Shown piece after piece: positions 18,910 to 59,678 of a stretch of 64,000 nucleotides of DNA; the first letter of the stretch is position 1, and each line of letters opens with the position of its first letter. Where the stretch lies: NCBI GenBank assembly GCA_003024785.1, contig PUQB01000687.1:61970-125969 (forward strand), given 5' to 3'. The notes below the pieces were generated by a model, which worked only from the letters and a program-made list of their open reading frames with translations, did not search any database and had not been told where the DNA came from. Origin of the DNA: Selaginella tamariscina. Lineage: Eukaryota; Streptophyta; Lycopodiopsida; Selaginellales; Selaginellaceae. The position numbers and the translations under genes are program-made.

Positions 18910-21031
18910 ATGCAAGCTAACAACGTAGAAAGCAAGAAGAAGCTATGCAGCACACCCGGAGAAACGAGAGCTATTCACCCTCGTCCTCATTCAATCAACA
19001 CAAACATGGGCAACACGCTAATAGAGAAGTATGGGAAACTGGGAATGCCAAGGAAGCAAGGAAGGTATTCGACAGCCTGGTTTACAAGGAGTCCTTCACT
19101 TGGGTGCTCATGATCTCTGCATACTCCCAGAACGGACTTATCAATGAGGCGAGGCAGGTTTTCGATGAAATGCCTGAGAAAGACAGGCTATCACGAACTG
19201 CCATGCTATCTGCATATGCACGTTGTGGGCATCTGCATAAGGCCAAGCAGATATTTGATTCTATGCCAGAGTGGGATGTGCATTCATGGAACTCCATGCT
19301 ATGTGGGTACAAAAAGAAAAACTTTATAAATGAAGCTAGAGAGCTCTTCAACTCCATGAAAGAGAGGAACTTAATCTCTTGGAATGCTTTACTCTCCGCA
19401 TATGCCCTGCTGGGTCATATGCAATCCGCAGAGAGTGTATATCAACATATGCCAGAGCACGATATGGTTTCCTTCACCACGATGCTAACCGCGTATTCGG
19501 TTTCTGGGGATATGGAGCAGTCAAGAAAGTTCTTTAACAGAATGCCGGAGAGGAGCTACATTGCATGGAATGCCTCCTCTCAGCGTATGCGGAGAGAGGG
19601 GAAATCCACGAGACCAAGGAACTTTTTGATATCATGCCGATGCGGGATCTCATCTCATGGAACAAGGTGCTTTCTGTACATGCCAGACTCGGGAATGTCG
19701 TAGAAGCCAGGAGGATCCTCCAGAGAATGCCGGAATGGAACGAGTCGTGTATGAGTTTGTTGATATCGATGTACGCGCAAAACGGGCATATCGAGGCAGC
19801 CAAAGATGTGTTCGACAGACTGCAGGAGCCTGACTTATTCTCGGGTACCGCCATGGTAGCTGCAGCTGGCCAGACGGGTGACATCTCCGAAGCAGAGAAT
19901 ATGTTCGACAGGATGCCCAAGAGGAACGTGGTATCATGGAATGCCTTGCTCTCGGCGTACGCACAGAACGGGTGTATGCACCGAGCGCGGCACTTTTTCT
20001 ATAACCGGATGCCCGAACATAACGTGATCTCGTGGTGCAGTATGGTGACTGGATACGCAGAGAGTGGAGACGTTCTTGAGGCTGAGAGTTTATTTAGTCG
20101 GATGCCTGAGGCAAACATGGCTTCCTGGAATGCACTCTTGTCTGCATATGTTATAAGCGGGCATTTTGAGAGAGCTGAGAGTGTCTTTAAGAGAATGCAG
20201 GAGTTTAACCTGGTTTCATTTACTACCATGGTTACAGCCTACGGTCACGCAGGTAGGTTTGGAAAGGCCAGGGAGGTCTTTGACAACATGCCGGAACGGA
20301 ACCTGGTAACGTGGAACTCACTGTTATCGGTTTATGCACAGAACATGCAGTTAGCAGATGCCGAGTTAGTCTATGAGAGGATGGAGAGATGGGACCAAGT
20401 GACAATGAACACGATGTTGTCAGCATATGCCCAAACTGGCAATATCAACCTTGCGAAAGACTTCTTTGAGAAGAGGATGGCGAGCAGGAATGTGGTGTCA
20501 TGAATGTGATGCTTAGAGGATATGCAAGGAATGGTCTTCTACGCGAAATGAGGAGTGTTTTCAATGGCATGGATGCTCGCGATCTTGCATCGTGGAATCA
20601 GTTGTTAACAACTTACTGCCAAGCAGGGAGCGTGCCCGAGGCAGACCGGGTATTTCATCGGCTTCCGGAGAGAAACTTGCTCTCCTGGAACACGGTTTTG
20701 GCTGGATATGCGAACAGCAGTTTAAGGAACCCGAAGAGAGCCCTAGAGATGTTCCATGAGATCCTTATGACGGATCTGCCGGACGTTGTCACGTTTACGT
20801 CCGTTCTGGTTGCGTGTGCACACCGGTTGTCTCGACGTCGGGTTGTCGTATTTCCGGTGTATGATTACAGATTGCAATCTGACTGCAGAGAAGCAACATT
20901 ACTGTTGTATGGTGAGCTTGTTGGGGAGGGCAAGACGTTTAGAAGATGCTAAAGAGTTGATCGTAAGCATGCCGTACTTGCCGGATTCAATGGATTTGAA
21001 TTCGTACATGTCATTACCAACATACACGTAA
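18910..21031 (+). CDS. PPR-PLS protein A (organellar RNA-binding)
   Basis: Intronless gene for about 700 aa made of tandem pentatricopeptide repeats of roughly 31 residues with the motif VVSWNALLSAYAQNG...EARELFDRMPERN. The repeats are mostly S-type with P- and L-type units, ending in a partial E-like tail (HYCCMVSLLGRARRLEDAKE). No DYW domain is seen. PPR proteins bind organellar transcripts one base per repeat and act in C-to-U editing, splicing or stability. The start at 18,910 gives MQANNVESKKKLCSTPGETR; no strong transit peptide is evident, so the true start could be elsewhere. The frame shifts near 19,030, 19,572, 20,503 and 20,824; each fits loss of one base, or of an AC pair at the last. 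It is either an assembly-damaged gene or a recent pseudogene. Confidence 0.85.
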
Positions 21032-36052: not shown

Positions 36053-36061
36053 CCTCATCTC
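36053..36061 (+). repeat. MULE target-site duplication, left copy
   Basis: CCTCATCTC, identical to 44,829-44,837. Nine bases is the standard Mutator-superfamily duplication length. Confidence 0.92.
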
Positions 36062-36100
36062 GGGTTTGACATTTCCTCGCGCAGTTTGCCGAGCGTACGG
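36062..36100 (+). repeat. MULE left terminal inverted repeat
   Basis: Imperfect TIR of about 35-40 bp starting GGG. The shared blocks with the right end are ATTTC, GCGCAG and CGAGC. Confidence 0.65.
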
Positions 36101-36367
36101 ATTTCCGTCATACCGGAATATTCCATTCCGTACAGAATATTCATTTTCATATAAAGAAATATTCTGGGTGCGGCGGCGGGCAATCATGGCGGCACGGTAA
36201 TGTGTCAAAGTTTCACAAATTTGGGGGTTAATCTGACATATATATTTATATATTATATTTATATTTATGTTTTTATTTTTTTAATATTTATATTTATAAC
36301 TATAATTATATTTTTATATAAATACCGCATCAAACTAAATAAAAATTACAATAAAAACATAACTCAA

Positions 36368-39300
36368 TCATGAAGACTCGTTTCCACCAGCCAGTGCCTC
36401 GTCGTTAATGAATGCATTGTTACGGTGTCGTGAACGTTTCTCCAAAATCTGTCTGTCGTAAACTTCGAACTCTTCAACCATTTTCTTTGCCATCTGATTA
36501 GCGTAGTCTGGTAGAACAATACTGAAAACATATTAAAGTTTAAAACCAAAGAAATGATAAAACAAATCTCACTCATCATCTGATGACTCGTATGATCTCT
36601 CTTCTGCTGACTCATCTGATGACTCGTCGTTGTGCTCCACGGACTTCTCCGTAACAACATCCTTGTCGTTTCGAGAAGGCGGATCCTGGTCTCCATCGTT
36701 GTCGCTAGCCAAAGGCAAATCCTTCTGTTTCCATGGCCCTCTTCCACTCATCAAAAGGAGTAATCATGGAAACAACTTGATCATCCCCACCACCTTCAGC
36801 TGCTGTAACACTTGGAATGACCTTCCTGAAGACATCTCTGGCTGCTAAAACCAGATCCTTGTTGATGTCGATTCCATAACCATGTCTCCCTGTGTGAAAA
36901 GCTGCAAGAATACTAGCACCGGTTCCCACTGTTAGATCCACAACAGTTCCACCAGGCTTTGTGAGCTTCTCCACTAGCATCGCAAACAACTTGGGAGATT
37001 TCGGGCCAATTGAAATCCTGAAAGTTACAATATTAGAACATGAGAAATAACAAACAACATTATACCATGGGAGCTGGAAATCTTCTGGCTCATCAAAAAG
37101 AAGAGTGTAGCGAGTGTCCAAGATCTCCTTGTTCTTGGCAACCTTAGAGTAGGGGGAACCAAAAATACACATGGCAATGATGCTTTCCTGAAAAAATAAA
37201 CATTAAAAAATGACATTCTCAAAAAGAAGAATTACCTTTCTAGAGAAACGGTATCCCCATGACTTTGTCGTGTGCACATAACTCATCTGCAGAAACTTTA
37301 GCTTGCAAGTTTCTGCAGTGTTCTTCAAAGCTAGAACATCATCCGGTAGCACAAACACTACCACATGGCCAGCTCTGTCTAATATCCCGAAAGCAAGGTT
37401 CACCAAGTTCTTCAGCAAAGCATCCGAGAACTTCGTGTATTGATCCACCATCCCGCCTGCCTCAGCAACGCATCCGGTAGGCGGGTCGATGACAACGAGA
37501 TCAACAGCTCCCTGGATGCATTTTGGTGGAGGCTTCGCACCAAACACATGAATAGTCCAACTTGACTTGTGACTCACGATCCAATCCTCAAGCTCCTTCA
37601 ATCCTGACGGAAAAGGCCTTCCGGCTTTGAAGTACTGGACTGCAAGGTTCTCTGAATCTGCATGAATGATTTCCCAGCTTCCATTTCCCTTCTCAGGCAT
37701 ACCATCCTCAACATATCATCTTCTTCCAATCCAGCCGAGATGAAGGATGGGGCTGAAGAAGAAGCTTGTCCCTTGCTGACCTTGCTCGCCGATCTAGCAT
37801 ACCTGATATCCATCTTCACATGGAGCTTCCTTGCAGCATTGTCGTTCTTCCATAATAGCTCTCGCCGATCATCCTTGTGTATCTTATAGCTGGCCATCTC
37901 CCATTCGGGACAGTCACCAGGAAGGAAATCCAGCCAGAAAGGACAGTGTTCCACTTTCGTAATCACTGATATCACGTAACAACCGGCTCCACATGCTAGA
38001 ATCCTTGGTAACATCCATCCACTCTTTGAAATCTTCAGGGAGTGCATCGTTTTTCCATTTTAAAAACCTGTAAAAATAGATAAAAATCTGTAAAGAAACA
38101 AAAAAAAAAACTTGCCTGAATGCCATTCTTTTTGCAGATTTTTCCAGCTCAAATAGTCGAGGAGGTGGAATTGTCGCACCGAACTCCTTGTTCTCGAGCA
38201 TGTTCTGGTACATATCCAACTTAATTTCATTGTGCATCTTCATATACCATGTCATGAACTCCTCTACATGCTCGACCAAAAGCTCTTTAGCTGCCTCCGC
38301 GACCTGGCACGATAAAACGAATAAAAATGAAAAATATAAATATTAAATTACCTGGAACCAGTAAGTAAAGATGTGCAAAAACTTGATGAAGTCCTTGTCA
38401 GGCCAGCCGGTGACACCTTCCTTCTTGTCTTTCTCCGTCATGTTCACCAGCTTCTCAAGAACGCCACGTTCTTGAATGTGCACAAGCTTTCCAAGGATAT
38501 CAACCTTGACGTTGGAAGGAAGCTGGGACTTCGCGAGCATTTGAAGCTTCTCCAGAGTTATTTGCTTCGTTGATGGTTTGATAGTGATATCTGTGATCGC
38601 CTTGAACCAATCTTCACCGACCGCCGGATCAGCAATGGTGAGGAATTTGTTCATCCGAACTGTGAATGTCTTGTAAACGCTGGAGAGGATCTGAGATTCT
38701 GTCTGGTTTGGTTTTCTTTCGCAAGTTTTGTTAGCGATTGTCGCTTCAGTTGATTCTGCAAAAGAAACCGAAAATCAAAAAACAGTCAAAAGAAGAAGAA
38801 AAGATTACCTCCCAAAAAATCTTCTCGCGAAGAACATGATCGGTAGAAAGATCTGCAGACTTCACACAACAATTCCGTAAGAACTGCAAGGTGTGAATGA
38901 TTGTTGTAGGAACCACACGAGCAGTTGCTCTGCAAAACAAAACAACATTTATTTAGTATTTAAATAATGAAACAAACAAGTCACTTACTCATTCAACGAT
39001 TGCAAGCAGCGATTAGTCTCTTCTGCACGTGATGCTATGAGTGTTGCACGTACACGCAAAGTCCATTTCAAACCTGGCTCTTCAGCAAGCAAAAGTGTTC
39101 AAAGCAACCCGACGATGATTCCCATCCCACACCAGAAACTTTGCATCTTTCAGAAATCGATACCATGCAGAAAATGCTGGCTTATGCAAATCCGCTTCAA
39201 ACTCTCTATCGACCTGTGCTTCTGACTCATTCCAACTTCGGCGTTCGTCTGCACTCAGCTGTGGTCCGAAAGATAAGGTGAACACTGACGTCTCCTGGTA

Positions 39301-40186
39301 AAAGCCTATCCAACCAAGGTCTTTCACGCCGTCCTTAGTGACATTCCTCAAACGTTGGTGTGGAGCAACCTGTGAACCGGGATACGCGGAGGCTCACCAA
39401 GCTCAACTGGAACGTAGTGGTCTCGTCCTTGTAGCGGTGTGTCAATATCTGTGTCATACCGAATAACAAGATCCCGAAGAAGCTTGGATGGAGCCTCAAG
39501 TGTCAGCCGCTCCGGAATTGCATATGATTCGGCAACATCCTCAGGAGCATCCAGTTTCCTCTTAAATTAAATACCAAGATCAATATAATTACCGTGTTCT
39601 GCAGAGCTTCCTGCAATCTCTTATTTTTAGGCATCCATTCACTCACCACAGTATGTTCATCAATGACTTGCAAACTATCCACATTGTTTCGGCATCATCT
39701 CTTTGTGTTGCAGTTGTTGCTTGGCGCCTCGGCCCCTTTCTTGCCACGAGGTTTGAAGCCATATCTACAAGAGCTTCTTGGACGATATGTTTTTGAAGTG
39801 TCAAAGTCTTGTATTTATCTCGTAGTCTCTTACTCTGCCTTTGTCTCATTCTGCAATTACAACAACTGATAAGTGTGTGTGTGTGAGTTGTTTTAATTTA
39901 TGGACACACATTTACTATATATGTTACCTATCAATATATATAACACACACGCACACACACACATATTTATACGTGTAATGTTGTTTGTGTGTGTGCTCAC
40001 TATATAATGTTCCTTGTGTATGTGTGTAATGTTGATTATGTGTGTGTGTGTGCAATGTTGTTTGTGGTGATGTGTCTGTGTGAGAGAATATGGGTATATT
40101 CATATCTCTTCACATGTATATACAGACGAAAAAGCATCATCTCATATAAAGTCTTAAATTCATATACTTATACATACATACATACA

Positions 40187-40231
<45 letters not shown>

Positions 40232-40336
40232 ATAAGTCTTTAAGTATGTATTTAATATATATATATACACACACACATGTATACAAGTCTAATGTTGTAT
40301 AATCATACGTGTGTAAAATGTTATTTATGTGTGTGC

Positions 40337-40379
<43 letters not shown>

Positions 40380-40569
40380 TTTCCTGCCCGAATTGGCAGG
40401 AAATGTGTGTGTGTGTGTGTGTGTTTGCCGAAATCGGCAATAACTCATGCGTCGGAGGTGTGTGTGTGTGCACACGCGCGTGCGTTTGTGAATACAAAGA
40501 AATCCTACTGAATTTGCACATACATTCACAGAAATTACTATACACATATAAGATTTTACCTGTAGCCAT
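36368..40569 (-). CDS. MULE-borne ParB-like / N6-N4 DNA methyltransferase-like protein
   Basis: Ten exons by splice sites: 40569-40560, 39850-39593, 39560-38989, 38929-38809, 38755-38352, 38303-38116, 38067-37236, 37187-37066, 37017-36573, 36521-36368; about 1,035 aa. Intron 6 uses a GC donor. The N-terminal third has a ParB/sulfiredoxin-type core (LGEPPRIPVHRLL; then LVWDGNHRRVALNT near 39,100). The middle is helical and unrecognised. The C-terminal third reads DLVVIDPPTG (37,467-37,500), then HVVVFVLPDD, then KPGGTVVDLTVGTGASILAA with GRHGYGID (36,905-36,960). That order, motif IV before motif I, is the beta-class DNA amino-methyltransferase layout. An acidic tail follows (NDESSDESAEERSYESSDDE). 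ParB-methylase fusions are known from phages. The catalytic tetrad is DPPT rather than DPPY/F/W. The frame shifts about six to seven times. Function in DNA modification or anti-silencing is inference. Confidence 0.75.
39853..40559 (-). repeat. Microsatellite- and hairpin-rich intron 1 of the methyltransferase-like gene
   Basis: The 709-nt first intron, by far the longest of this gene, holds TA runs (40,190-40,240), about 19 AC units (40,340-40,376) and about 11 GT units (40,402-40,424). Between the AC and GT runs lies the perfect palindrome ATTTCCTGCC-CGAATT-GGCAGGAAAT, followed at 40,425-40,441 by TTGCCGAAATCGGCAA. Confidence 0.8.
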
Positions 40570-41242
40570 GTCGCCGTGACGCTCACACTAGCCTCTTGTC
40601 GCCGCAAAAAAAAGAACAAAAGTGCCCTCTCTCAACAATGGAGAATGGAGAAGAAGAATGGGTAGTCCTGAACCTTTACCCTAAAATCTAACACTTAACC
40701 CTTTGACCCTTAACTATAAAACTGTGTTTAATTAAACCATACAACAGTATATATAATACTTACGATAAATAACATACTATATAAAAGGATACAAATACAA
40801 ACACATATTTAAGTAAAAATTTGTATGTTAAAAAATATTATTATATAATTAAATAAATATTCGTGTAAAAATATGTATTTATAATTGACAATTGGTAGCG
40901 GAGCAAGTATTAATCAACATCTACATTTGATAAAATACTGGATCAAATAACTATATAATTATAATAAATAAATTAACAGAATATAAACAAGTCATAAATA
41001 AATATGTCAGATGAATGTAGATTAGACACACATTTATTTAAAAGACAATAAAGATTGCTCTATCTCTACGTGAAGTGCTATACTATATTAGCATCTAAGA
41101 TCTATACGTTTCCTTGAATTAAATATTCGCCCACGTTGAGTCATGATTGTGAATTTTTGAAATGGTAATATCCGATATTTACCAAAAGATGATTAAGTAA
41201 TGCTGTTGTTTTTCTGTCACGTTTGTGGTAACTGCTTGCAAA
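40570..41242. promoter_or_regulatory. Shared divergent promoter region inside the MULE
   Basis: 673 bp between the two divergent start codons, AT-rich. No gene is present. The element needs both promoters here; no individual box could be assigned with confidence. Confidence 0.5.
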
Positions 41243-44200
41243 ATGGCCAGGATTGTTTACGGCAATTTGGATCACGATGTTCCTGTGATAGATGGTGTTG
41301 GAATCATTCTTACTAATCAGATTAGAACGTTCTTTGGCATTTTTGATTGGCAAAGTGTTCGTCTTTTTAAACTTCTTCATGGGCAATCTGCTTTACAGAT
41401 CGAAATAAACGAGGACCAAGATGCTGGAGGGAAGGATAATCCAGGATATGTTTTGTTACCGGATGAAGGACCATTGTTTAAGCTTGTCGTTGCTTCTGAC
41501 TCTGAATACTCAACGTTGAAGAACCTTTTCACTTCTAATACCTGCAAAAAGGGAAGAATTCTTATCGAGGGTTCCACGATCATTCATACAAATGAATTGC
41601 CTATTGCGTATGATGGGGATGTCATTTTTGAGCTCCCTCCTTCCGAATACAAATACAAAGGAATGAATCGGAAAGAGGATGGACATACCTGGACAGCAGG
41701 AACGACCAGCAACTGGAATTTTCAAGCGAGGGTGTCCAGGAGCAAATGTGTTGGGAGCCTTTGCTGTATCAACCCGGACTGCCCTGCTTCTAAGGCAGGA
41801 TTTCCGAACTGCACTAAATGGAAAGGATGTATTGTTTCCCCACCTTCAATCGACAAACTGGCAAAAGGATTGACATGTTTTTTCTGTAAAGAAAATCCAT
41901 TGTGCCTTGAAGTTTGTCATGCTGTGGCGTTTTGCGTTTTCCCAGACGACATAACCAAGACTAGATTGTTTATCCACCAGGGAAAACATTCACATCCAGT
42001 GGGTGATGGTGTTTCTGCATCGAACAAAGAAGAAATGCATATGGCGGTCCAGAATGCAACAGAAAGAACTCCCAGAGCTAGTCCAAGAGTCATCGAAATG
42101 GCAGCATGTAAAGATGCTATCTTTGGTTTTCTATTAGATAATTCTGAGCCTGGAAGTTGGGATAAGCTCATGGATCATTTGCAACCATTATCAAACAATC
42201 GAAGGTACAATTAGAGTTTTACTTTGTGCTGAGCATTCTTTGATAATACCTTTGATGCAGAGTTCGTCAATGGGTAGCGTCCGCAAAGAGAACTGCTGCT
42301 GAAATGCCAGAGAATATTGATGGATTATTGGAGCTGAAACGAAGGTTGTCTATCCCATTCATCCACGTGATTCACTATCCTGGGATGAATTTCCGTGGTT
42401 CAGACGACCAGGCATTAGTTTTTAAGATGACGGTTTCAGGGCCAGGTTCTGGAATCGATTATGTAAGGATGTGCCAACCTCCTCTTGGCCCTTTGCAGAA
42501 GAGTTGGGTTCTACTTGATCACACACACCGTGTTGTTGATAAGTGGATCACTCTGGCATTGCATGTTTACGACCCAAAGTAAGATGTTATCTTTTTGTTG
42601 TTTGCTTAACTCTTTGATTATTTTATAGTGTGCGCCGATTATCCACCATTGCTTATGGTGACATGAAGAGACAAACGGCTGGAGCTGTGGAGAAGTTTTT
42701 TCGTGCTATGTTGGATGTCTGTTCCGAGAAGGGAATCTACAATGTGCAGTTCGCTGGGTTTATGTCCGATGAAGCAGGAGCGATCTGGCAAGCAATTAGG
42801 AATGTGTTCTTTAATGGCCAAGAAATTCCTGGACGTGAACGGAGCTGTATCTTTCACTATGAACAAGCCATACAACGTGTGACAAGGAAGTGGGTCCCTC
42901 TTGAACATCAACAACAACATCTTCAACTTTTGAGATCATGGCCAACAGCCACATCAACAACTGATCGTGAAGAAATTGAAAATAATCTTTTCCGCTTTTG
43001 GAATGAAAATGTGAAGGATGTTGGAGTTATGCAGACGTGGTTTTCATGGTGGGAAAGACAGAAGAATCATATTTCAAATGTTGTTCTTGAAAGCATGCCG
43101 GAGAATGCTGCAAGGGTTGTGCCCATGACAAACCAGTCGGAGTCTGTTCACGGAAGATGGAGGAGGGCTAGAGATTCAAAATACATTTCATTGTACCAAG
43201 CTACAATCCACGACCTGACTGAATCAGTGCGACAATGTGCTCTTGTGAAGGCTTTTAGAGATGGAAGGTATAGTGGTTCCGGGCCGACTTCAGAGGAGCT
43301 CTCAGCAAGGTTCGAGAGAAGAATGTCAAATGCTAACTCAACAACACCTACAGCAAAGGTTATCATCGACTTAGTTGAAGATGTTGCTCCATCAAGCATG
43401 CAGGATACTGCTTTTGTGGCTGCCACGAATGTTGAACATCGCACTGTGCAAAGAAATATGGGGTCAGAGGCTGAACGATCCCACCGACCGGACATCTTCT
43501 ATAGTGAACAGGTTATTCCAACACAGTGTAGACGGAAGCGACGATTGGATTTTCAACTTGCAGAAGAACATGAAGAATATGTTCTGGTTGAAGAACAAGA
43601 TGTTACACCTGGACAATGGGCGATTAGAAGATGTGGTGAAAGAAGTTCTGTGAAATGTCTGGCAGGCTTTCCCTCTTCAGGAGGTCAGTGGAGTGCTTGT
43701 GACAAAAAGATCAGTCCTAGTGGTAATCGAGTGGCTGCTCCTTGTTTTTTTGGAAGGATCAGATACAATGACAAAGAAACTGGTGAAGAATGCTTTCGCT
43801 CACAAATGATGTATTTTTGTCCAACAAACATGCTTTGCAACAGACATCCAAGACCAACTATTGTTTCTCCGCCAGCTTCTACCTCGGTTTGGAAAGTTCA
43901 AGTGGGCACGAAGCTGATAGCAATGGAGATCAATGATCTGGCAAGATCAGGTTTTATGCTAGCTGGGCTTCCTTCAGCTCATGCAGGAGTGCCAGGTTTT
44001 TCAACACCTCATGTTCCTTCAGTTCCTGTTGGAGTCACTGGATTTTCAACACCCCCTGCACAATTTCGTGGACCTCCTGTTCCTGCAAGTGGTCGTGCAA
44101 CAAGAACACCTTTAGGGATGTCTAAGAAACAACAGGTAAGTTTTGAAGCATGTTTGACGTTGGGAGCATATGTCGCAGAAGTTGACGTGGTTGATCCTCC

Positions 44201-44462
44201 AACATGCATTCGCTTCAGAGTATGTGACAACGACCATACATCTGCTTGGGTTGTCATTTGTAGCGCACCATCTTGTTCATGCTCGGAGTTCTGCAATGGT
44301 CGTCAGTGGGTGCCTTGCAAACATATGTATTTTGTTTACAAGCGTGTACTGGGAGCTGATCCTCGAGTTGTCAAGCATTTGCAACGTCGTACACTTGCAC
44401 CCCGTGAACTAAGTTCTTTATTGATGCTACCAAGGAACCTCCATCCTCCACCATCTATTTAG
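41243..44462 (+). CDS. MULE transposase (MURA type, DDE with SWIM zinc finger)
   Basis: Three exons (41243-42204, 42261-42578, 42629-44462), about 1,037 aa, no frame break. N-terminal region unknown; residues about 165-265 form a Cys/His-rich FLYWCH/WRKY-GCM1-like zinc finger (CVGSLCCINPDCPASK ... LFIHQGKHSHPV). The DDE core follows: first Asp in VLLDHTHRVVDKW (near 42,510), second Asp in GFMSDEAGAIWQAI (near 42,760), the CxFH motif in CIFHYEQAIQRV, and Glu in TNQSESVHGRWRR (near 43,140). A Pro-rich linker has near-repeats GVPGFSTP / GVTGFSTP. The C-terminal SWIM finger is CSCSEFCNGRQWVPCKHMYF. All expected catalytic and zinc residues are present, so it looks capable of activity. The start is the first ATG of the frame. 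Confidence 0.93.
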
Positions 44463-44635
44463 TGTGTTTGGTTTGTTTTCAAACAGCTTCGGTTTTATAT
44501 TTGTTATTTCAAACTTATAATTTTCAATATAAATTTTAATGGTAATTTTATGTTTAGCATATTTTTAAGTAATTTAACATATATTTTCTTTAAATACAAC
44601 AAAAATATACTACCATATTTTGTATGCGGCCGCCG

Positions 44636-44828
44636 CACTAGAATATTCTAGAATATTCTTGAAAATTTTGGAAGGTCCAATTGTGTGTACACTTGGCAGT
44701 ACGAAAAATTTCCGTACAGAATATTCGAGGATATCTAGACGGAAATCGTACGGAACAACGGAATATTCAAGAATATTCGGAAATCTAGGTCAAGCTCGTT
44801 GACCTGCGCTCGAATTTCGCCGTGCCCC
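44636..44828 (+). repeat. MULE right subterminal repeats and TIR
   Basis: Five or more GAATATTC copies between 44,640 and 44,780 and the 17-mer TTCCGTACAGAATATTC shared with the left side (near 36,125). The last 35-40 bp form the imperfect TIR ending GCCGTGCCCC. Confidence 0.75.
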
Positions 44829-44837
44829 CCTCATCTC
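44829..44837 (+). repeat. MULE target-site duplication, right copy
   Basis: CCTCATCTC, identical to 36,053-36,061; the interrupted PPR reading frame resumes here. Confidence 0.92.
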
Positions 44838-47505
44838 GGGGTACGCAGAGAACGGGTTGGGAGAGTTCGCTTTGGAACACTTCAAGCTAATGCAGCCTGC
44901 GGACTGTCCACCCACTGCCAGGACCTTCGTTGCTGCACTCAAGGCATGTACAAACAATTCACTTGCAGAGAGTTTACATGCAAAATCTATAGAGTGCGGC
45001 TTCGGATTTGACATGTACTTAGCAAACAGCCTGATATATACATTCTGCAAATGCAGAAGCCTAGTGAAAGCCCGTCTTTTGTTCGACACAATGCCATTGC
45101 GAGATCTGGTGACATGGAATGTGTTGTTACAGGGATACGTGGAGAATGAGGAAGGCAAAGAGGCTCTGTATCTCTTTACTCGAATGCAAGCCGAAGGATG
45201 TAAACCCGATTCCTTGACGTTTGTTGCAGTACTCAAGGCTTGCTGTGAACGTCCACTTGAGAGTGTTGTGTTAACTCCGTGGCTTTGGAGAGAGGCTTTT
45301 GTATACATTCTTAAGCAGTTGAGAGTGGCTGCGTGGGTAATATATACCTCGAGTGTGGGTTGATCAATATGTACGCGAGCAACGGGAGCTTGTTTCATGC
45401 TCGCACAGTGTTCGATCAGATGAGAAACCATGATATAGTTTCATGGAACTCAAAGCTTGCGGGGTGTGTGGAGAATCACGAAGAAGGTTTAGCTTTGGAT
45501 TTAATACCTTGCATGAAACCGCACGGCTTTGTCCCAGATAGTTCAACATTTGTAGCTGCCTTCAACGCTTGTGCAAAGCTAGCAGCTTTAGAGGATGCCA
45601 ATGAAATGCAGTCTCTCCAAACTGCGGTAGCTCTCCATAACGACGCAGCTAGAGACCAGTGTGATCTGGATCCTTATGTGAGAAGGGCCCTCATCAACAT
45701 GTATGGAAAGTGTGGGAGCCTTGTAGACGCTCGCAGGCAGGTAGACATACAGGACTTATCTTCGTGTACATCTCTAATGCTTGCATATATAGAGAATGGG
45801 GCACCTGGTTTGGCATTAGACTTGTTCAATATGCTCCGATACGATGAACATTACACGGTTGATGAGCCACGGACGTTTGTTGCTGCAGTGAAGGCCTGCA
45901 CTAGCCTAGCAGCGAAAGAGCTTGGGAGGAAATTTAACGGCAGCGTGGTAAAGCTAGAGTCGCTGGAGAAAGGGATGGATATTCACGCTCTTGCTGAGAA
46001 GAATCTACATTGCTGCCTGGGAACCTTTGTAGAGAACTCGCTCGTGGACATGTACGTGAAGGCTGGGAGCTTGTGGGATGCACGTAGAGCGTTGGACAGG
46101 ATGCAGTTTCATACAGTCGTGTCGTGGAATGCATTGCTTATGGGATATGGTGAAAACGGTGAAGGAGAGCTTGCTTCCACGTGTTTGAGTGTATCCCGTG
46201 TTCCCCAGACTCGATCACATATGTTGCTGCACTCAAGGCATGTGCTGAAAGTGCAAAGCTAGTGATTCCTTCCCCTTTAACTAAGGAGGATGACACAAGG
46301 AACAGGCGGTTAGAGTTTGTGGAGAATTGTATGAAGATACACTCACGAGCAGGCCGGGAGGTAGGGACTCTTGTTGGAAACACATTGGTGGATACATACT
46401 CTAAATGCGGTAGCATGCTGGATGCTCGAGCTGTTTTCGACACGATGCCATTTCGGACCCTTGTGTCATGGAATGCACTCAAGGGATACGTAGATAATGA
46501 GGAAGACGAGATGGCCTTGAGTCTTTTCTCCTTGTTACACATTCAAGGCCATGTACCAGACTCTCAAAGCTACGCGCAAGCACTCAAAGCCTGCGGAGCC
46601 ATTGCTGCATTGGAGAGCATAAAAGCAATTCACTCGGAGATATGTCAATGTGGACTGGAACAACACGAGGACACGCTTATTGCATCTCTTGTTGATGTAT
46701 ATGGGAAATGTGGGAACATGGAGTTTGCAAAGCATGTGTTTTGATTCGTGGTGCGTCCAATATGGGGACTGCACGGTTTGGACTTCACTCATAGCGGGTT
46801 ACAGTCGAGCAGGGGATGCAGCCAAGGTGTTTGAGACGTTACATGAAATGCACACTCAAGGTTTTCAAGCAGATAGTGTTACGTTTCTATGTGTTCTCTC
46901 TGCATGTAGTCACGCTGGCCTTGTTGAGAAGTGCAAGGAGTACATGAAGAAGATGCGCGAGAGAGACCATATGGATATGGGGATTGGGCATGTTACGTGC
47001 CTTGTCGATGCACTTGGAAGGTTGAACAGTTTAGAAGATGCAGTTGAGGTAGCAAAGAGCGTGGCCTGCGTGGCAAGCGTGTGGAGAGCTCTTCTTGGGG
47101 CTTGTTTAAAATGGAGGAATGCGGAGGTTGGTAGAATAGCTTATGATAATCTGATCAAGCTGGATGCCAAAGATGCTTCAGCGTACGTACTCATGGCAAA
47201 TATATGTGAAAGCCAATGAGATGTGTATAGAATATAGCATATAGGCAGCATAATATGATCACTAAATGTAACGGAAGATTGGGCTGTATCCAAATAGAGC
47301 ACCCCTCTGCAATGCGGCAGCACTCTTCGGGATTCGACGGAAAAAACTTGTACACGGGGACGACCATCGGATTCCTGCCGGAGAGTACATTTCTGTTCCT
47401 TGAAATTAGTTTCTCATAAACTTGCTCGCTGTTTTTTTTCACTGCAGGGAGTGAGCGAGGAGTCCTGAACGAGTATTTCAACTCATGAAGTCCTTCCCAG
47501 ACTGA

Positions 47506-54725: not shown

Positions 54726-57700
54726 AGTTTGATAATAATTGCTTTCATAGCTTTTCGATTTTCAATTACTTTTTTTCCTTGATTCTTCTCCTTTGTTTTT
54801 CTCCTTTTTTTTTTCTTTCATAGATCATGGCCGATTTTGAGCAATTTCAACACGAGCACCAAATATTGCTTCATGAGCTAGCCACTTTGCGCCAAGTGGT
54901 CACAGATCTGCAAGGTTCCACCAACGCAGCGCATGCAGCTGCTGATGCATCTTCCAAGGCTGCTACATAGGCTCTCTCTCAAGCATCCGTGATTTCCTCT
55001 ACATCGAACACTTCTTCGGAGCTGAAGATTAGCATGCCAGAAAAGTTCAATGACAATCATGCCGATTTTCAAGGGTTCCTGAATTAGATTAGGCTTTTGA
55101 TCCGCATGCAACCACGCCACTACTCAACTGATGCACAAAATGTTGGTCTTTTGGCATCCCTACTATTTGGATCTCCACGGGCTTGGGTTGCCCCTTTGCT
55201 GGAACGTGATGACCCATTGATGGAAGACTTTGAAGGTTTCGTGGCTGCCTTTGAAGCTTGCTTTGGAGATCCCGATAAGTACCGTTCTGCATGCACGAAG
55301 TTACGAAAGCTCACACAAGGATTTCGACCAGCTTCCGTTTATGCATCCGAATTTCAGCAACTTTGCACGAACATTCCATGGGACGAGACTGCATTGATTG
55401 AACACTTCCATTTTGGGTTGAGGGATGATGTGAAGGACCTTCTCCTTTTGTTACCGGATGCCCAAACATTAGCGGAAATCATGCAACAGGCCGTTTGCTG
55501 CGACAACTGCTTGTTCGAGCGTCGTCAGAAAAAATCCCGTCAACAGTTCCTGCAAACCAATCCTGCAGCTGTGGTACATACTTCTGCAACACCTTCTGGA
55601 GTAGTTCCTATGGAGGTTGAGAAATACAAGCGTGGCCCACTTTTCGCTGCTGAGAAGCAACGTCGCCGCAGTGAGAATCTATGTTTGTATTGTGGTGAAG
55701 CAGGACACAAGGCGGCGGAATGTCCTTTAAAACCAGGAAGTTCAAGACGCGTGAAGTTGAAGTTGAAGTTCAGTCGGAAAACTTCAATGTTCACTTTGTT
55801 TAGGAGCCACGAAGTTGGACGTAGGTGCAGGCTCCATTGGTGTTGCTCATACCATTCCATCACTCAAGTTTTCGGTACACATTCAATCTCAATAATCGAG
55901 AGCTCAAGGAGTTTTGCCCTGTTAGACACTGGTGCAAAATGCATGCTTCATGTGACACTTTTGCAACTCAACATGGCATTCCGATGGTGAAGTTGAAGCG
56001 TGCAGTTCCTATAGAGGTGGCCGATGGTCGTCTAATTGCTTCTGGCGCAGTTACCCATGCTACCAAACCTCTCTCTTGCAGTCATGGCACATTCAACTGT
56101 TCAATTTCCTTCAACTTGATCAAGACTCGGTCGACTCCCATCATTTTGGGCATGCCATGGTTCGTTGTTGCAAATCCTCAGATCAACTGGAGGTCTAGGA
56201 CGTTCACATTTTCCTCTCCGGCAACCAGGACCAATCCTGTACCTTCCTGTGTGCAGAATACATCCTTAGTGTCTGAGGCAGTACAAGCTACAGGATTGAC
56301 CGTGCCAGTGTTGAAGACTCCTCCTCGACAGGATCCACCTCCTATTGGTTCGTCAGCACACTCACAAGTTCTTCTCACTCCTGTGCATCCACGGACTTCT
56401 GTACAGGATTCTTCCAATCCTGTACACTTGTCAACATCCACACATGTTTATCTCAATCCTGCCTCTTTTCATTACTCTTCTTCTATTCCACCCCCAAGAT
56501 CCTTCCTCTTTTTCAATCACAGCTCCTTCCTTCTCCTCTTCGAGTTCTTACCACTACCATACATGAACTTGTCACTGATCCTACTCCTTTTCATCTTTTT
56601 GCCTTCCAAGTAACTCCTACGTCCTCTCTACCTTTCCTGTATCTAATTCCCCTGTTTTCAATTTCCTTCTCCTGTTCCTTCTTCTTTTCCTCCTTCTTCC
56701 TTACCATCCAAGTATCACTCCTTTCAGAACGTTTTTTACAAGCAACAAGGCTACAGTTCTTCCTGTTCACAGGTCCTACGACTGTCCTATCGATCTTGTG
56801 GAAGGAAAGACTCCACCGTTCGGACCGATTTATGCACTGTCACCTACAGAATTGGAGGTTTTTCGTCAGTACATCAAGGAAAACTTGGCCTCCGGCTTCA
56901 TTCGTCACTTAAAGTCCCTTGCAGGAGCACCTATCTTCTTTGTCAAGAAGAAAGATGGAAGTTTACGTTTGGTTGTGGACTACAGAGGTTTGAATCAAAG
57001 TCACCATTCGGAACTGGTACCCGTTGCCATTGATCCCGGAACTTCTCGATCGACTGCAAGAGCAAAAAGTGTTCACGAAGATTGACTTACGAGGGGCTTA
57101 CAATCTTGTACGGATTCGTCCAGGCGATGAGTGGAAGACTGCCTTTCGTACAAGGTATGGACACTTCGAGTATACGGTGATGCCTTTCGGACTTACCAAT
57201 GCCCCAGCCGTGTTCCAACACATGGTGAACGACATCTTTCGTGACTTCTTGGACCAGTTTGTGGTAATCTACCTCGATGACATTTTGATTTTCTCCAAGG
57301 ACCAGGCGGCTCATGACAAGCATGTACGACTAGTCTTACAGAGGCTTCGCGAGCATGGCCTGTATGCGAAGTTGGAGAAGTGTTTCTTCGACAGGGATAC
57401 TGTAGAGTTCTTGGGCTACATCGTCTCTCCTGCTGGCGTTTCCATGGACATGCACAAGGTGAAGACTATCGGAGTGGGAGAGGCCCAAGTCTGTACGAGA
57501 TGTACAATGTTTCCTTGGCTTTGCAAACTTCTACAGGCGTTTCATACAGGACTTCTCCAAGCGTGTACTTCCACTCACGGAACTCACCAAGCGCACAGGA
57601 GTGTTCTCTTGGTCCGACAAGGCAGAACATGCATTCACAACACTCAAGAACATCTTCACGACAGCTCCGATTTTAGCACATCCTGATCCTTCTCGTCCCT

Positions 57701-59678
57701 TCTTCGTTGAAGCAGATGCCTCGGATTTTGCAGTAGGATCTGTTCTATCACAAGTTGGAGAAGATAAGTTGCTTCATCCTGTAGCTTTTCACTCTCGTAA
57801 GTTCCTTTCGGCGGAGATCAATTACGAGATTCATGACAAGGAACTCAAGGCCATTGTGGATTCGTTCGAGGAGTGGCGGCATTTCCTGGAAGGTGCTGCG
57901 CATCCTGTACAAGTTCTTACGGATCACAAGAACCTGGAGTATTTTCAAACGGCTCGAGTTCTCAGTCGGCGACAGGCTAGGTGGGCGGAGTTCCTATCAC
58001 GTTTTGATTTCGTCATCATCTACAGGCCTGGTTTTCGAAATGGCAAGGCGGATGCATTGTCTAGGCGCTCTTACCTTGCACCGACCCCGGGCGATCCTGC
58101 ATATGACTGTCAAAAGCAAGTGTTGTTGGGTCCTGATCGACTTCGGCTTGCAGCACTACAAGTTCATCAGGCTCCAGCAGATTCCACACTCCTACAGGAC
58201 ATCCGTTTGCAGTTGGCTACAGACGACTTGGCAAGGAATGTGTTTTCACACATTAGTCCTGACATCGCAAGTTCCTCTTCCTCCAGTTCCCGTACAGACT
58301 ACAAGTTGTTTACCATACAGGACGGACTCCTGTATCGGGAAGGTCCTGTATGTTCCTGTTGGTGTTTGCAGGACTCGTGTGGTACAGGATTGTCATGATA
58401 CCCCGGCTACAGGACATTTTGGTGTGGCCAAGACAGTTGAGTTGGTGACTCGCAACTATTGGTGGCCTGGGTTGCGAGGTTTTGTGGACAAGTTTGTACG
58501 GAGTTGTGACACCTGCAATAGGTCGAAGATGCCTCGTCACGCGCCCTCTGGTCTTCTTCGTCCTCTTCCTGTTCCTTCTGCTCCTTGGAGATCCATTTCT
58601 ATGGATTTCCTCACAGATCTTCCTCCTTCTCGTGGATTTGATGCAGTTCTTGTCGTGGTTGACCGTTTCACCAAACAAGCTCATTTCCTACCATGTCACA
58701 AGACTGCTACAGGCCAGACAACTGCTGAGTTGGTGATCCGCGAAGTATTCCGACATCATGGTCTTCCTGAGAGCATTGTTTCTGATCGAGGCCCACAATT
58801 CATGTCCAAGTTTTGGCGAGAACTTCTCCGGAGTCTACAGGTTAAAGCGGACCTTTCTTCAGGATACCATCCACAAACTGATGGGCAGTCAGAACGCACG
58901 ATTCAGACCTTGGAGCAATATCTTCGCTGCTTCATCAGTTACCAACAGGACAACTGGTTGGACCTTCTTCCAATGGCGGAGTTTGCCTACAACAACTCCG
59001 TTCACGCATCTACAGGCCAGACACCTTTCTTTGCTCTTACAGGCTACCATCCACGTTTTGACTTTGCTCCTCTGCTTCTCCTTCTTCTGCTCCTGCAGTA
59101 CAGGATCGTCTCCAGCATCTTCGTCAGGTACATGAGGATCTCCGGGTTCATCTTCAGCAGGCACAGGAACGGTACAAGCATTATGCTGATGCTCATCGTC
59201 AACCGGCACCTACATACAAGATTGGTGATCTCGTGTGGCTTCTTCGTCGGCATATTCGCACCAACAGGCCTTCTTCTAAGTTGGATTTTCAACGATTGGG
59301 CCCTTACAGGATTGCGGCTGAGGTCAATCCTGTAGCTTTCCGACTCGAGTTACCATCTACGGTGAAACTTCATCCTGTGTTTCACACTTCTTTGTTGGAG
59401 CCGTATCATCCTTCTTCTCTTCTTGGTCGTGCTTCTTCTCCTCCCCCTCCTGTGGTCATTGGTGAACCTGAGTATGAAGTTGCAGCCATCCTTGATTCTC
59501 GTCTTCATGCCGCCAACTTCAATACTTGGTGGATTGGAAAGGTTATTTGCCTACCGATCGCACTTGGGAACCTGCATCCAACTTACTCCATGCTTTTCCA
59601 AAGTTGCTGCTTTCCATCGGCGTTATCCTGCTAAACCAGGTCCAAGACTCGTGGAACTCGTCCTTAGGGAGGAGGTGC

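What the first reader, a model, noticed from the sequence alone, without database searches (positions are those of the whole stretch)
36062..44828. A plant Mutator-like element that carries a ParB/DNA-methyltransferase gene beside its transposase
Seen: one 8.77-kb element with 9-bp target duplication and two divergent genes, a MURA-type transposase and a ten-exon gene whose product has a ParB-like core (DGNHRRVAL) and a beta-class N6/N4 DNA-methyltransferase layout (DPP motif, then GxG motif). Known: ParB-methylase fusions occur in phages and bacteria; VANDAL MULEs of Arabidopsis carry VANC, which counters host DNA methylation. Inference: this element may mark, protect or unsilence its own DNA with a captured prokaryote-type modification protein. 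I know of no described plant MULE with this cargo, but could not search.
Basis: partly seen in the sequence, partly recalled or inferred. Interest (0 to 1): 0.93.

Follow-up and report, generated by a model that had tools for sequence, protein, structure and literature searches.

The report
Clubmoss jumping gene carrying a DNA-methyltransferase
A recently multiplied jumping gene in what is probably a clubmoss genome carries, next to its own transposase, a bacterial-looking DNA-methylating protein that it may use on its own DNA; similar cargo was known from algal jumping genes, and this extends it to a vascular plant.

Summary
Window 36062-44828 is an 8,767-bp DNA transposon in a PPR gene, with an exact 9-bp target duplication and two divergent genes: a 1,037-aa MULE-like transposase (sub-threshold but near full-length MULE-domain match) and a gene with a beta-class N6A/N4C DNA methyltransferase (PF01555 above cut-off) plus a probable ParB/DGQHR-like domain (sub-threshold DndB matches only). 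In this copy the second gene is broken by indels, perhaps assembly error; two of five other copies encode an identical 1,092-aa protein. The genome (Selaginella tamariscina, inferred from assembly size) holds many copies; the 30 best-scoring differ from the window by a median of 1 mismatch in about 3.7 kb. A divergent methyltransferase lies near 61 of 72 transposase places. Conversely, 58 of 119 listed methyltransferase places had no listed transposase, from a capped list. Prior art: ParB-methyltransferase genes opposite the transposase are reported from Ectocarpus Sola1 (1,104 aa) and other algal transposons. New here: vascular-plant host, MULE-like vehicle, recent burst. The element's GAATATTC palindromes lie only at its ends; older copies show CG/CHG decay typical of host cytosine methylation. 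Self-marking or unsilencing is likely but not shown.

The parts
36062..44828 (.). whole transposon, 8,767 bp, inserted in a PPR gene
   Evidence: exact 9-bp TSD; matches of 27 of 29 other copies end at 44827-44831
36053..36061 (.). left target-site duplication CCTCATCTC
44829..44837 (.). right target-site duplication CCTCATCTC
36062..36165 (.). left end: short imperfect inverted repeat and subterminal GAATATTC sites (36116, 36135)
   Evidence: local alignment of the two 300-bp ends scores 95 against at most 53 in 200 shuffles
44641..44828 (.). right end: GAATATTC sites at 44641, 44651, 44719, 44761, 44771 and inverted end ..GCCGTGCCCC
36368..39849 (-). ParB-like/DNA-methyltransferase gene, 8 exons (39849-38989, 38929-38809, 38755-38352, 38303-38116, 38067-37236, 37187-37066, 37017-36573, 36521-36368); broken in this copy, 1,092 aa in two intact copies
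   Evidence: stop codon position counted by hand
39100..39126 (-). DGNHRRVAL motif of the ParB/DGQHR-like domain
   Evidence: sequence; DndB matches lie here
37476..37487 (-). methyltransferase motif IV, DPPT
   Evidence: sequence; inside the phrog_67 match
36915..36938 (-). methyltransferase motif I region, DLTVGTGA
   Evidence: PF01555 match
41243..44462 (+). transposase gene, 3 exons (41243-42204, 42261-42578, 42629-44462), intact, 1,037 aa
   Evidence: PF10551 E 0.0079 over profile 2-96 of 99 and SWIM E 3.1 on fragments, both sub-threshold
39850..41242 (.). 1.4-kb region between the divergent genes, microsatellites in its left half; presumed shared promoter region
   Evidence: position; repeats; promoter role inferred

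Best explanation
A recently active MULE-like transposon of a lycophyte carries a regular accessory gene for a 1,092-aa protein with an N-terminal ParB/DGQHR-like domain and a C-terminal beta-class DNA amino-methyltransferase. Shown: the element, its boundaries, the gene, its linkage at most transposase places examined, the near-identity of the best copies, two intact identical genes, the methyltransferase domain. Inferred: the ParB-like part recognises the element's own DNA (best candidate site: the palindromic GAATATTC arrays confined to the two ends), and the methyltransferase puts N6-methyladenine or N4-methylcytosine there, which either blocks or reverses host cytosine-methylation silencing or marks ends for the transposase. 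My odds: accessory gene of the element 0.95; acts on element DNA as a methyltransferase 0.5; net effect is anti-silencing 0.3.
For: Linkage: 61 of 72 transposase places, 40 of 40 matched left ends (same contig within 2.5 kb, strand not checked), 5 of 5 fetched left halves. Recency: median 1 mismatch to the window over about 3.7 kb in the 30 best-scoring copies, window's own included. Complete 1,092-aa frame, identical in 2 of 5 copies. PF01555 above cut-off, phrog_67 4.4e-9, PADLOC mad2 4.9e-10. All 7 GAATATTC of the window's element lie at its ends. Three older copies (L066, L038, L040) show C-to-T decay concentrated in CG and CHG, which suggests that the host methylates them. A missense deficit in old copies of the gene hints at past selection.
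Against: Motif IV is DPPT, without the usual aromatic residue, so activity is uncertain. ParB assignment is sub-threshold. No binding or methylation data. The GAATATTC array could serve the transposase alone, or be a heat-shock-element-like sequence; in eight right ends fetched from other places it keeps 5, 5, 4, 4, 3, 3, 2 and 2 of 5 exact sites, so it erodes with age like the rest. The selection signal is modest (9 to 148 of 2000 simulations reach it for four copies) and absent for the methyltransferase part of L066 taken alone (19 missense against 20.1 expected, 798 of 2000). 58 of 119 listed methyltransferase places had no listed transposase, though only 72 of 2297 transposase candidates were scored. 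The window's own copy of the gene is broken, as are L031, L033 and L035 as assembled.
Confidence: 0.5

Rival explanations
1. The protein is a transposition factor: it binds the ends with the transposase, like a MURB-type helper protein (recalled), and the methyltransferase fold is a structural relic without catalysis.
For: DPPT instead of DPP plus aromatic residue (sequence); terminal palindrome arrays are where a transposition complex would bind; the gene is kept at most transposase places examined.
Against: DPP and the GTG region both persist in the intact copies; PF01555 above cut-off.
Confidence: 0.25
2. The mark protects or labels transposition intermediates or newly inserted copies (for instance from nucleases or repair), rather than opposing silencing.
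For: Modification domains resemble phage and restriction-system methyltransferases.
Against: No plant nuclease that would be blocked is known to me (recalled); older copies suggest the host acts through CG/CHG methylation.
Confidence: 0.15
3. Passenger cargo: a gene captured and carried along by a successful element, without a role (Pack-MULE-like).
For: Plant Pack-MULEs carry captured genes (recalled; mentioned in PMC12477816, passage); selection signal is weak; 58 of 119 listed methyltransferase places had no listed transposase.
Against: An 8-exon gene intact and identical in 2 of 5 copies; the same architecture reported in algal transposons (PMC12477816). A host donor gene was not properly tested: PF02195 finds nothing in the genome, but it does not match this gene either, and the PF01555 search did not complete. 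Odds raised from 0.10 to 0.13 on rechecking, because I had counted that as evidence.
Confidence: 0.13

Closest known systems
ParB-like/DNA-methyltransferase gene of Sola1-1_Ec32 (Ectocarpus) and the green and red algal transposon relatives cited with it
   Same: Transposon cargo on the strand opposite the transposase; ParB-like plus N4C/N6A methyltransferase; 1,104 aa against 1,092 aa (PMC12477816, passages)
   Different: Vehicle is Sola1 (21.5 kb) there and a MULE-like 8.8-kb element with 9-bp TSD here; algae there, a vascular plant here; sequence homology between the two proteins could not be tested
VANDAL MULEs with VANC (Arabidopsis)
   Same: MULE-type element with a second gene; a sequence-specific anti-silencing role is the proposed parallel (PMC10398659 abstract; PMC13317346 passages)
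   Different: VANC is not known as a methyltransferase (recalled); no comparison with a VANC sequence was made here
DIRS retrotransposons with Dam-like methyltransferases; DNMT-carrying retrotransposons of Symbiodinium and Klebsormidium
   Same: Transposable elements carrying their own DNA methyltransferase (PMC5890265, abstract and passages)
   Different: Retrotransposons; C5 or Dam-like enzymes; no ParB-like domain mentioned in the passages seen
Phage and bacterial beta-class methyltransferases (phrog_67, MADS mad2)
   Same: Domain and motif order IV then I
   Different: Very distant: the only hit among 1766 protein candidates has E 4.7, 24% identity

Membership tests
Mutator-like element (MULE) | 8-10 bp target-site duplication (range recalled) | tested here: met
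   exact 9 bp at 7 of 14 other copies with both ends read, and at the window; two of the 14 are one site, so 8 of 14 sites; the rest match partly or not
Mutator-like element (MULE) | MULE transposase domain PF10551 | tested here: inconclusive
   E 0.0079, 17.1 bits against cut-off 27.6, profile 2-96 of 99, on a fragment only; not seen with the whole protein
Mutator-like element (MULE) | SWIM zinc finger | tested here: inconclusive
   PF04434 E 3.1 over 12-34 of 38; CxC..CxH visible by eye
Mutator-like element (MULE) | terminal inverted repeats | tested here: met
   short and imperfect; score 95 against at most 53 in 200 shuffles
Beta-class DNA amino-methyltransferase (N6A/N4C) | N6_N4_Mtase profile above cut-off | tested here: met
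   31.4 and 31.9 bits against 26.7
Beta-class DNA amino-methyltransferase (N6A/N4C) | motif IV before motif I | tested here: met
   DPPT then GTG region; the phrog_67 match covers both
Beta-class DNA amino-methyltransferase (N6A/N4C) | (D/N/S)PP followed by Y, F or W (consensus recalled) | tested here: not met
   DPPT in the window and in L032, L034
Beta-class DNA amino-methyltransferase (N6A/N4C) | methylates DNA | not testable with these tools
   needs native reads or an assay
ParB/Srx-type domain | ParB profile PF02195 | tested here: not met
   no match with the intact domain at E up to 10
ParB/Srx-type domain | DGQHR-type relative (DndB) match | tested here: inconclusive
   PF14072 7.8e-4, TIGR03233 0.021, PADLOC DndB 7.9e-4; the first two below their curated cut-offs, the third has none given
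Algal-type transposon ParB-methyltransferase accessory genes | gene in the transposon, opposite strand to transposase, about 1,100 aa, both domains | tested here: inconclusive
   position, strand, size and methyltransferase met, ParB-like part only sub-threshold; compared with the text of PMC12477816
Algal-type transposon ParB-methyltransferase accessory genes | common descent by sequence | not testable with these tools
   algal sequences not held
VANC anti-silencing protein | VANC-type sequence and loss of 5mC on related copies | not tested
   no VANC sequence or methylation data at hand

The most novel reading that the evidence does not exclude
A vascular-plant transposon writes its own non-5mC DNA mark (6mA or 4mC) through a ParB-guided methyltransferase aimed at palindrome arrays at its ends, overriding host CG/CHG silencing, which explains its recent burst.
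Probability: 0.28. Interest if true: 0.92.

Novelty: new variant of a known kind. Interest (0 to 1): 0.72.

Why it matters
It suggests that ParB-methyltransferase cargo is not confined to algal transposons: it sits in a compact MULE-like element of a vascular plant, in many nearly identical recent copies. That makes a disputed question (recalled), whether plants have functional DNA 6mA or 4mC, testable with native long reads over a defined target, and offers a counterpart to VANC anti-silencing based on adding a mark rather than removing one.

Tried and rejected
Window gene read through for searches: seven frame changes replaced by X gave no homolog (7998 candidates scored); replaced by actual intact copies (L032, L034). 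Transposase protein search: none of 5431 candidates. Methyltransferase domain search: one hit at E 4.7 among 1766 candidates, not significant and not examined. Scans of viral contigs and genome contigs gave pattern matches but no relative by tblastn; phages gave two records of one phage at E 0.05, 24% identity, annotated as a methyltransferase. Single-sequence structure prediction of the methyltransferase part (window letters with two introns read through, TAA in one read as Q): mean pLDDT 34.8, useless, so no fold search was run. Searching the genome with PF01555 and PF10551 did not complete. Simple dN/dS looked strong for the gene in the more diverged copies (0.34-0.40 in L066, L038, L040; transposase of L066 0.57), but a spectrum-matched simulation showed much of it is expected under neutral decay. 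'The gene is dead in this family' was rejected: two intact copies were read. 'Ten exons' was rejected. Of 11 transposase places without a listed methyltransferase, 6 were checked: 4 have left-half sequence (one full match over 1.5 kb, three partial or rearranged), 2 have none at the expected place; the other 5 were not checked.
Full report
What is there. The window is plant DNA: PPR genes, a protein kinase, a UDP-glycosyltransferase, reverse-transcriptase RNase H of a retroelement. Its genome is 300,702,823 bp in 1391 contigs, which fits the 300.73-Mb PacBio/Falcon assembly of Selaginella tamariscina (PMC8558194, passages only); the species is inferred from that size match. At 36062-44828 an 8,767-bp element interrupts a PPR gene. 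It is flanked by CCTCATCTC on both sides, and its ends are imperfect inverted repeats (local alignment score 95, at most 53 in 200 shuffles).

Genes. On the plus strand a three-exon gene encodes an intact 1,037-aa protein. The whole protein hits no Pfam transposase family, but the fragment with the presumed catalytic core matches the MULE domain over positions 2-96 of 99 with E 0.0079, below the curated cut-off, and the C-terminal fragment touches SWIM at E 3.1. With 9-bp duplications this makes a divergent MULE-like element the best filing, not a proven one. On the minus strand lies the second gene. In the window it changes frame seven times without an in-frame stop in 3.07 kb. Elsewhere in the window two PPR stretches and the Gypsy-like element show 11 frame changes and no stop in 8.8 kb, while the transposase shows none in 3.1 kb; this pattern suggests assembly indels, though a really damaged copy is not excluded.

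Other copies. A search of the own genome with transposase exon 3 gave 77 matches from 72 scored of 2297 candidates; 21 places, the window's included, have the full score of 1443.6 bits. The 30 best-scoring copies (window included) differ from the window by a median of 1 mismatch over about 3.7 kb, range 0-34; the 29 others have 28 distinct right-hand neighbours (L018 and L019 share one). Being the best matches, they overstate how young the family as a whole is. Of 14 other copies with both ends read, 7 have an exact 9-bp duplication, as has the window; two of the 14 are the same site, so 8 of 14 sites. Five left halves were fetched: all carry the methyltransferase gene. In the part of their alignment that was printed (the output was cut) they agree with one another at nearly every place where the window differs, L035 being an exception at one. 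Two, L032 and L034, encode the same complete 1,092-aa protein in eight exons; L031 and L033 each lose the frame through a private indel, and for L035 my exon reading failed after 59 residues. Across the genome 61 of 72 merged transposase places have a divergent methyltransferase match within 20 kb, 55 of them at 4.0-6.5 kb as in the window; 11 do not. Conversely 58 of 119 listed methyltransferase places have no listed transposase, but both lists were capped. Six of the 11 were looked at: four contain left-half sequence (one full, three partial or rearranged), two do not at the expected place. A search with the left 160 bp gave 40 matches (40 scored of 137 candidates), and all 40 have a methyltransferase match within 2.5 kb on the same contig (compared with 54 of the listed methyltransferase places, strand not checked).

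Domains. The C-terminal part is a beta-class DNA amino-methyltransferase: PF01555 31.4-31.9 bits against a cut-off of 26.7, matching the last quarter of the profile only, phrog_67 E 4.4e-9 spanning both motifs, PADLOC mad2 E 4.9e-10. Motif IV is DPPT; the usual Y, F or W (recalled consensus) is missing, so catalysis is not assured. The N-terminal part reads RIPVHRLLPHQRLRN...FLVWDGNHRRVALNTLL...WTLRVRATLI, which looks like the ParB/Srx layout (judgement by eye, recalled). No ParB profile matches, and the Protein Data Bank gives nothing useful (one unrelated-looking hit at E 0.28), but DndB models of Pfam, NCBIfam and PADLOC all match at the DGNHRRVAL motif with E 7.8e-4, 0.021 and 7.9e-4, the first two below their curated cut-offs. 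That DndB belongs with ParB-like folds is recalled.

Candidate target and host response. All seven GAATATTC palindromes of the window's element lie at its ends: two in the first 81 bp and five in the last 188 bp, none in the roughly 8.5 kb between; the other 55 kb of the window hold seven. The right ends of the 30 best copies hold three to five each, five in 24 of them. Eight right ends from other, mostly more diverged places hold 5, 5, 4, 4, 3, 3, 2 and 2, so the array is recognisable in older copies but erodes. The spaced repeat also fits a heat-shock-element consensus (recalled), so other binders are possible; both arrays lie downstream of the two genes. In three older copies C-to-T changes (both strands, direction assumed from the young copy) hit CG and CHG sites more than CHH: L066 methyltransferase 34 of 198, 38 of 230, 33 of 787; L066 transposase 39 of 160, 50 of 245, 39 of 853; L038 34 of 167, 35 of 211, 38 of 726; L040 17 of 142, 14 of 176, 20 of 629 (counts summed). 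This is the signature expected of host cytosine methylation on dead copies (inference).

Selection. Against simulations matched to the observed substitution types, old copies of the methyltransferase gene show fewer missense changes than expected: L066 109 against 122.6 (32 of 2000 simulations as low), L038 90 against 105.8 (9 of 2000), L040 41 against 48.2 (114 of 2000), L039 6 against 9.1 (148 of 2000). The transposase: L066 118 against 125.9 (237 of 2000), L026 12 against 17.5 (28 of 2000). By part, L066 shows the deficit in the ParB-like exon (34 against 43.0, 33 of 2000) but not in the middle (42 against 45.8, 432) or the methyltransferase part (19 against 20.1, 798); L038 middle 44 against 52.6 (61), methyltransferase part 26 against 31.5 (142). 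Stop codons are not clearly depleted in the whole-gene tests (all). This is weak support for past function of both genes.

How it may work. The likeliest reading is a self-directed modification protein: the ParB-like part finds the element's DNA, the methyltransferase marks it, and the mark helps the element escape or precede host 5mC silencing. Binding, methylation and effect are all inferred. Rivals are a non-catalytic transposition helper, protection of intermediates, and passenger cargo.

Comparison with what is known. PMC12477816 (Ectocarpus transposable elements, 2025; [quoted passage not shown] The idea and the kind of cargo are therefore not new. Its two cited sources are not held. PMC5890265 (abstract and passages) covers methyltransferases in retrotransposons. 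PMC10398659 (abstract and outline) and PMC13317346 (passages) cover VANC; the latter review holds no occurrence of 'methyltransferase' or 'methylase' in its main text. Of my ten literature searches eight bear on whether this is in print; their listings (titles, starts of abstracts) show no land-plant case, I opened only the papers named here and PMC7145664 (passages), and most subscription papers are not in that library.

Verdict. Real, correctly delimited, a regular part of a family with a recent burst; a new variant of a known kind, with a vascular-plant host and a MULE-like vehicle as the new points. Function untested.

Noticed in passing
window 36116-36142, 44641-44778: Palindromic GAATATTC arrays confined to the element's ends; GAATATTCTAGAATATTC also resembles a heat-shock element (recalled).
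   Followed up: partly
window 18990-20940, 44835-47200, 55120-59600: Coding stretches (two PPR genes, a Gypsy-like retroelement) show 11 frame changes and no in-frame stop, suggesting uncorrected indels in this assembly.
   Followed up: partly
L066, L038, L040: Older copies decay by C-to-T at CG and CHG but little at CHH.
   Followed up: yes
L018 and L019 (C484, C521): Two contigs share the same insertion flanks on both sides: a segmental duplication or unmerged haplotigs.
   Followed up: no
L071/L030 (C554): One copy seems to have an 18-bp rather than 9-bp duplication at its flanks (by eye).
   Followed up: no
window 39870-40560: Dense TG/CA and TA microsatellites between the two divergent genes.
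   Followed up: no
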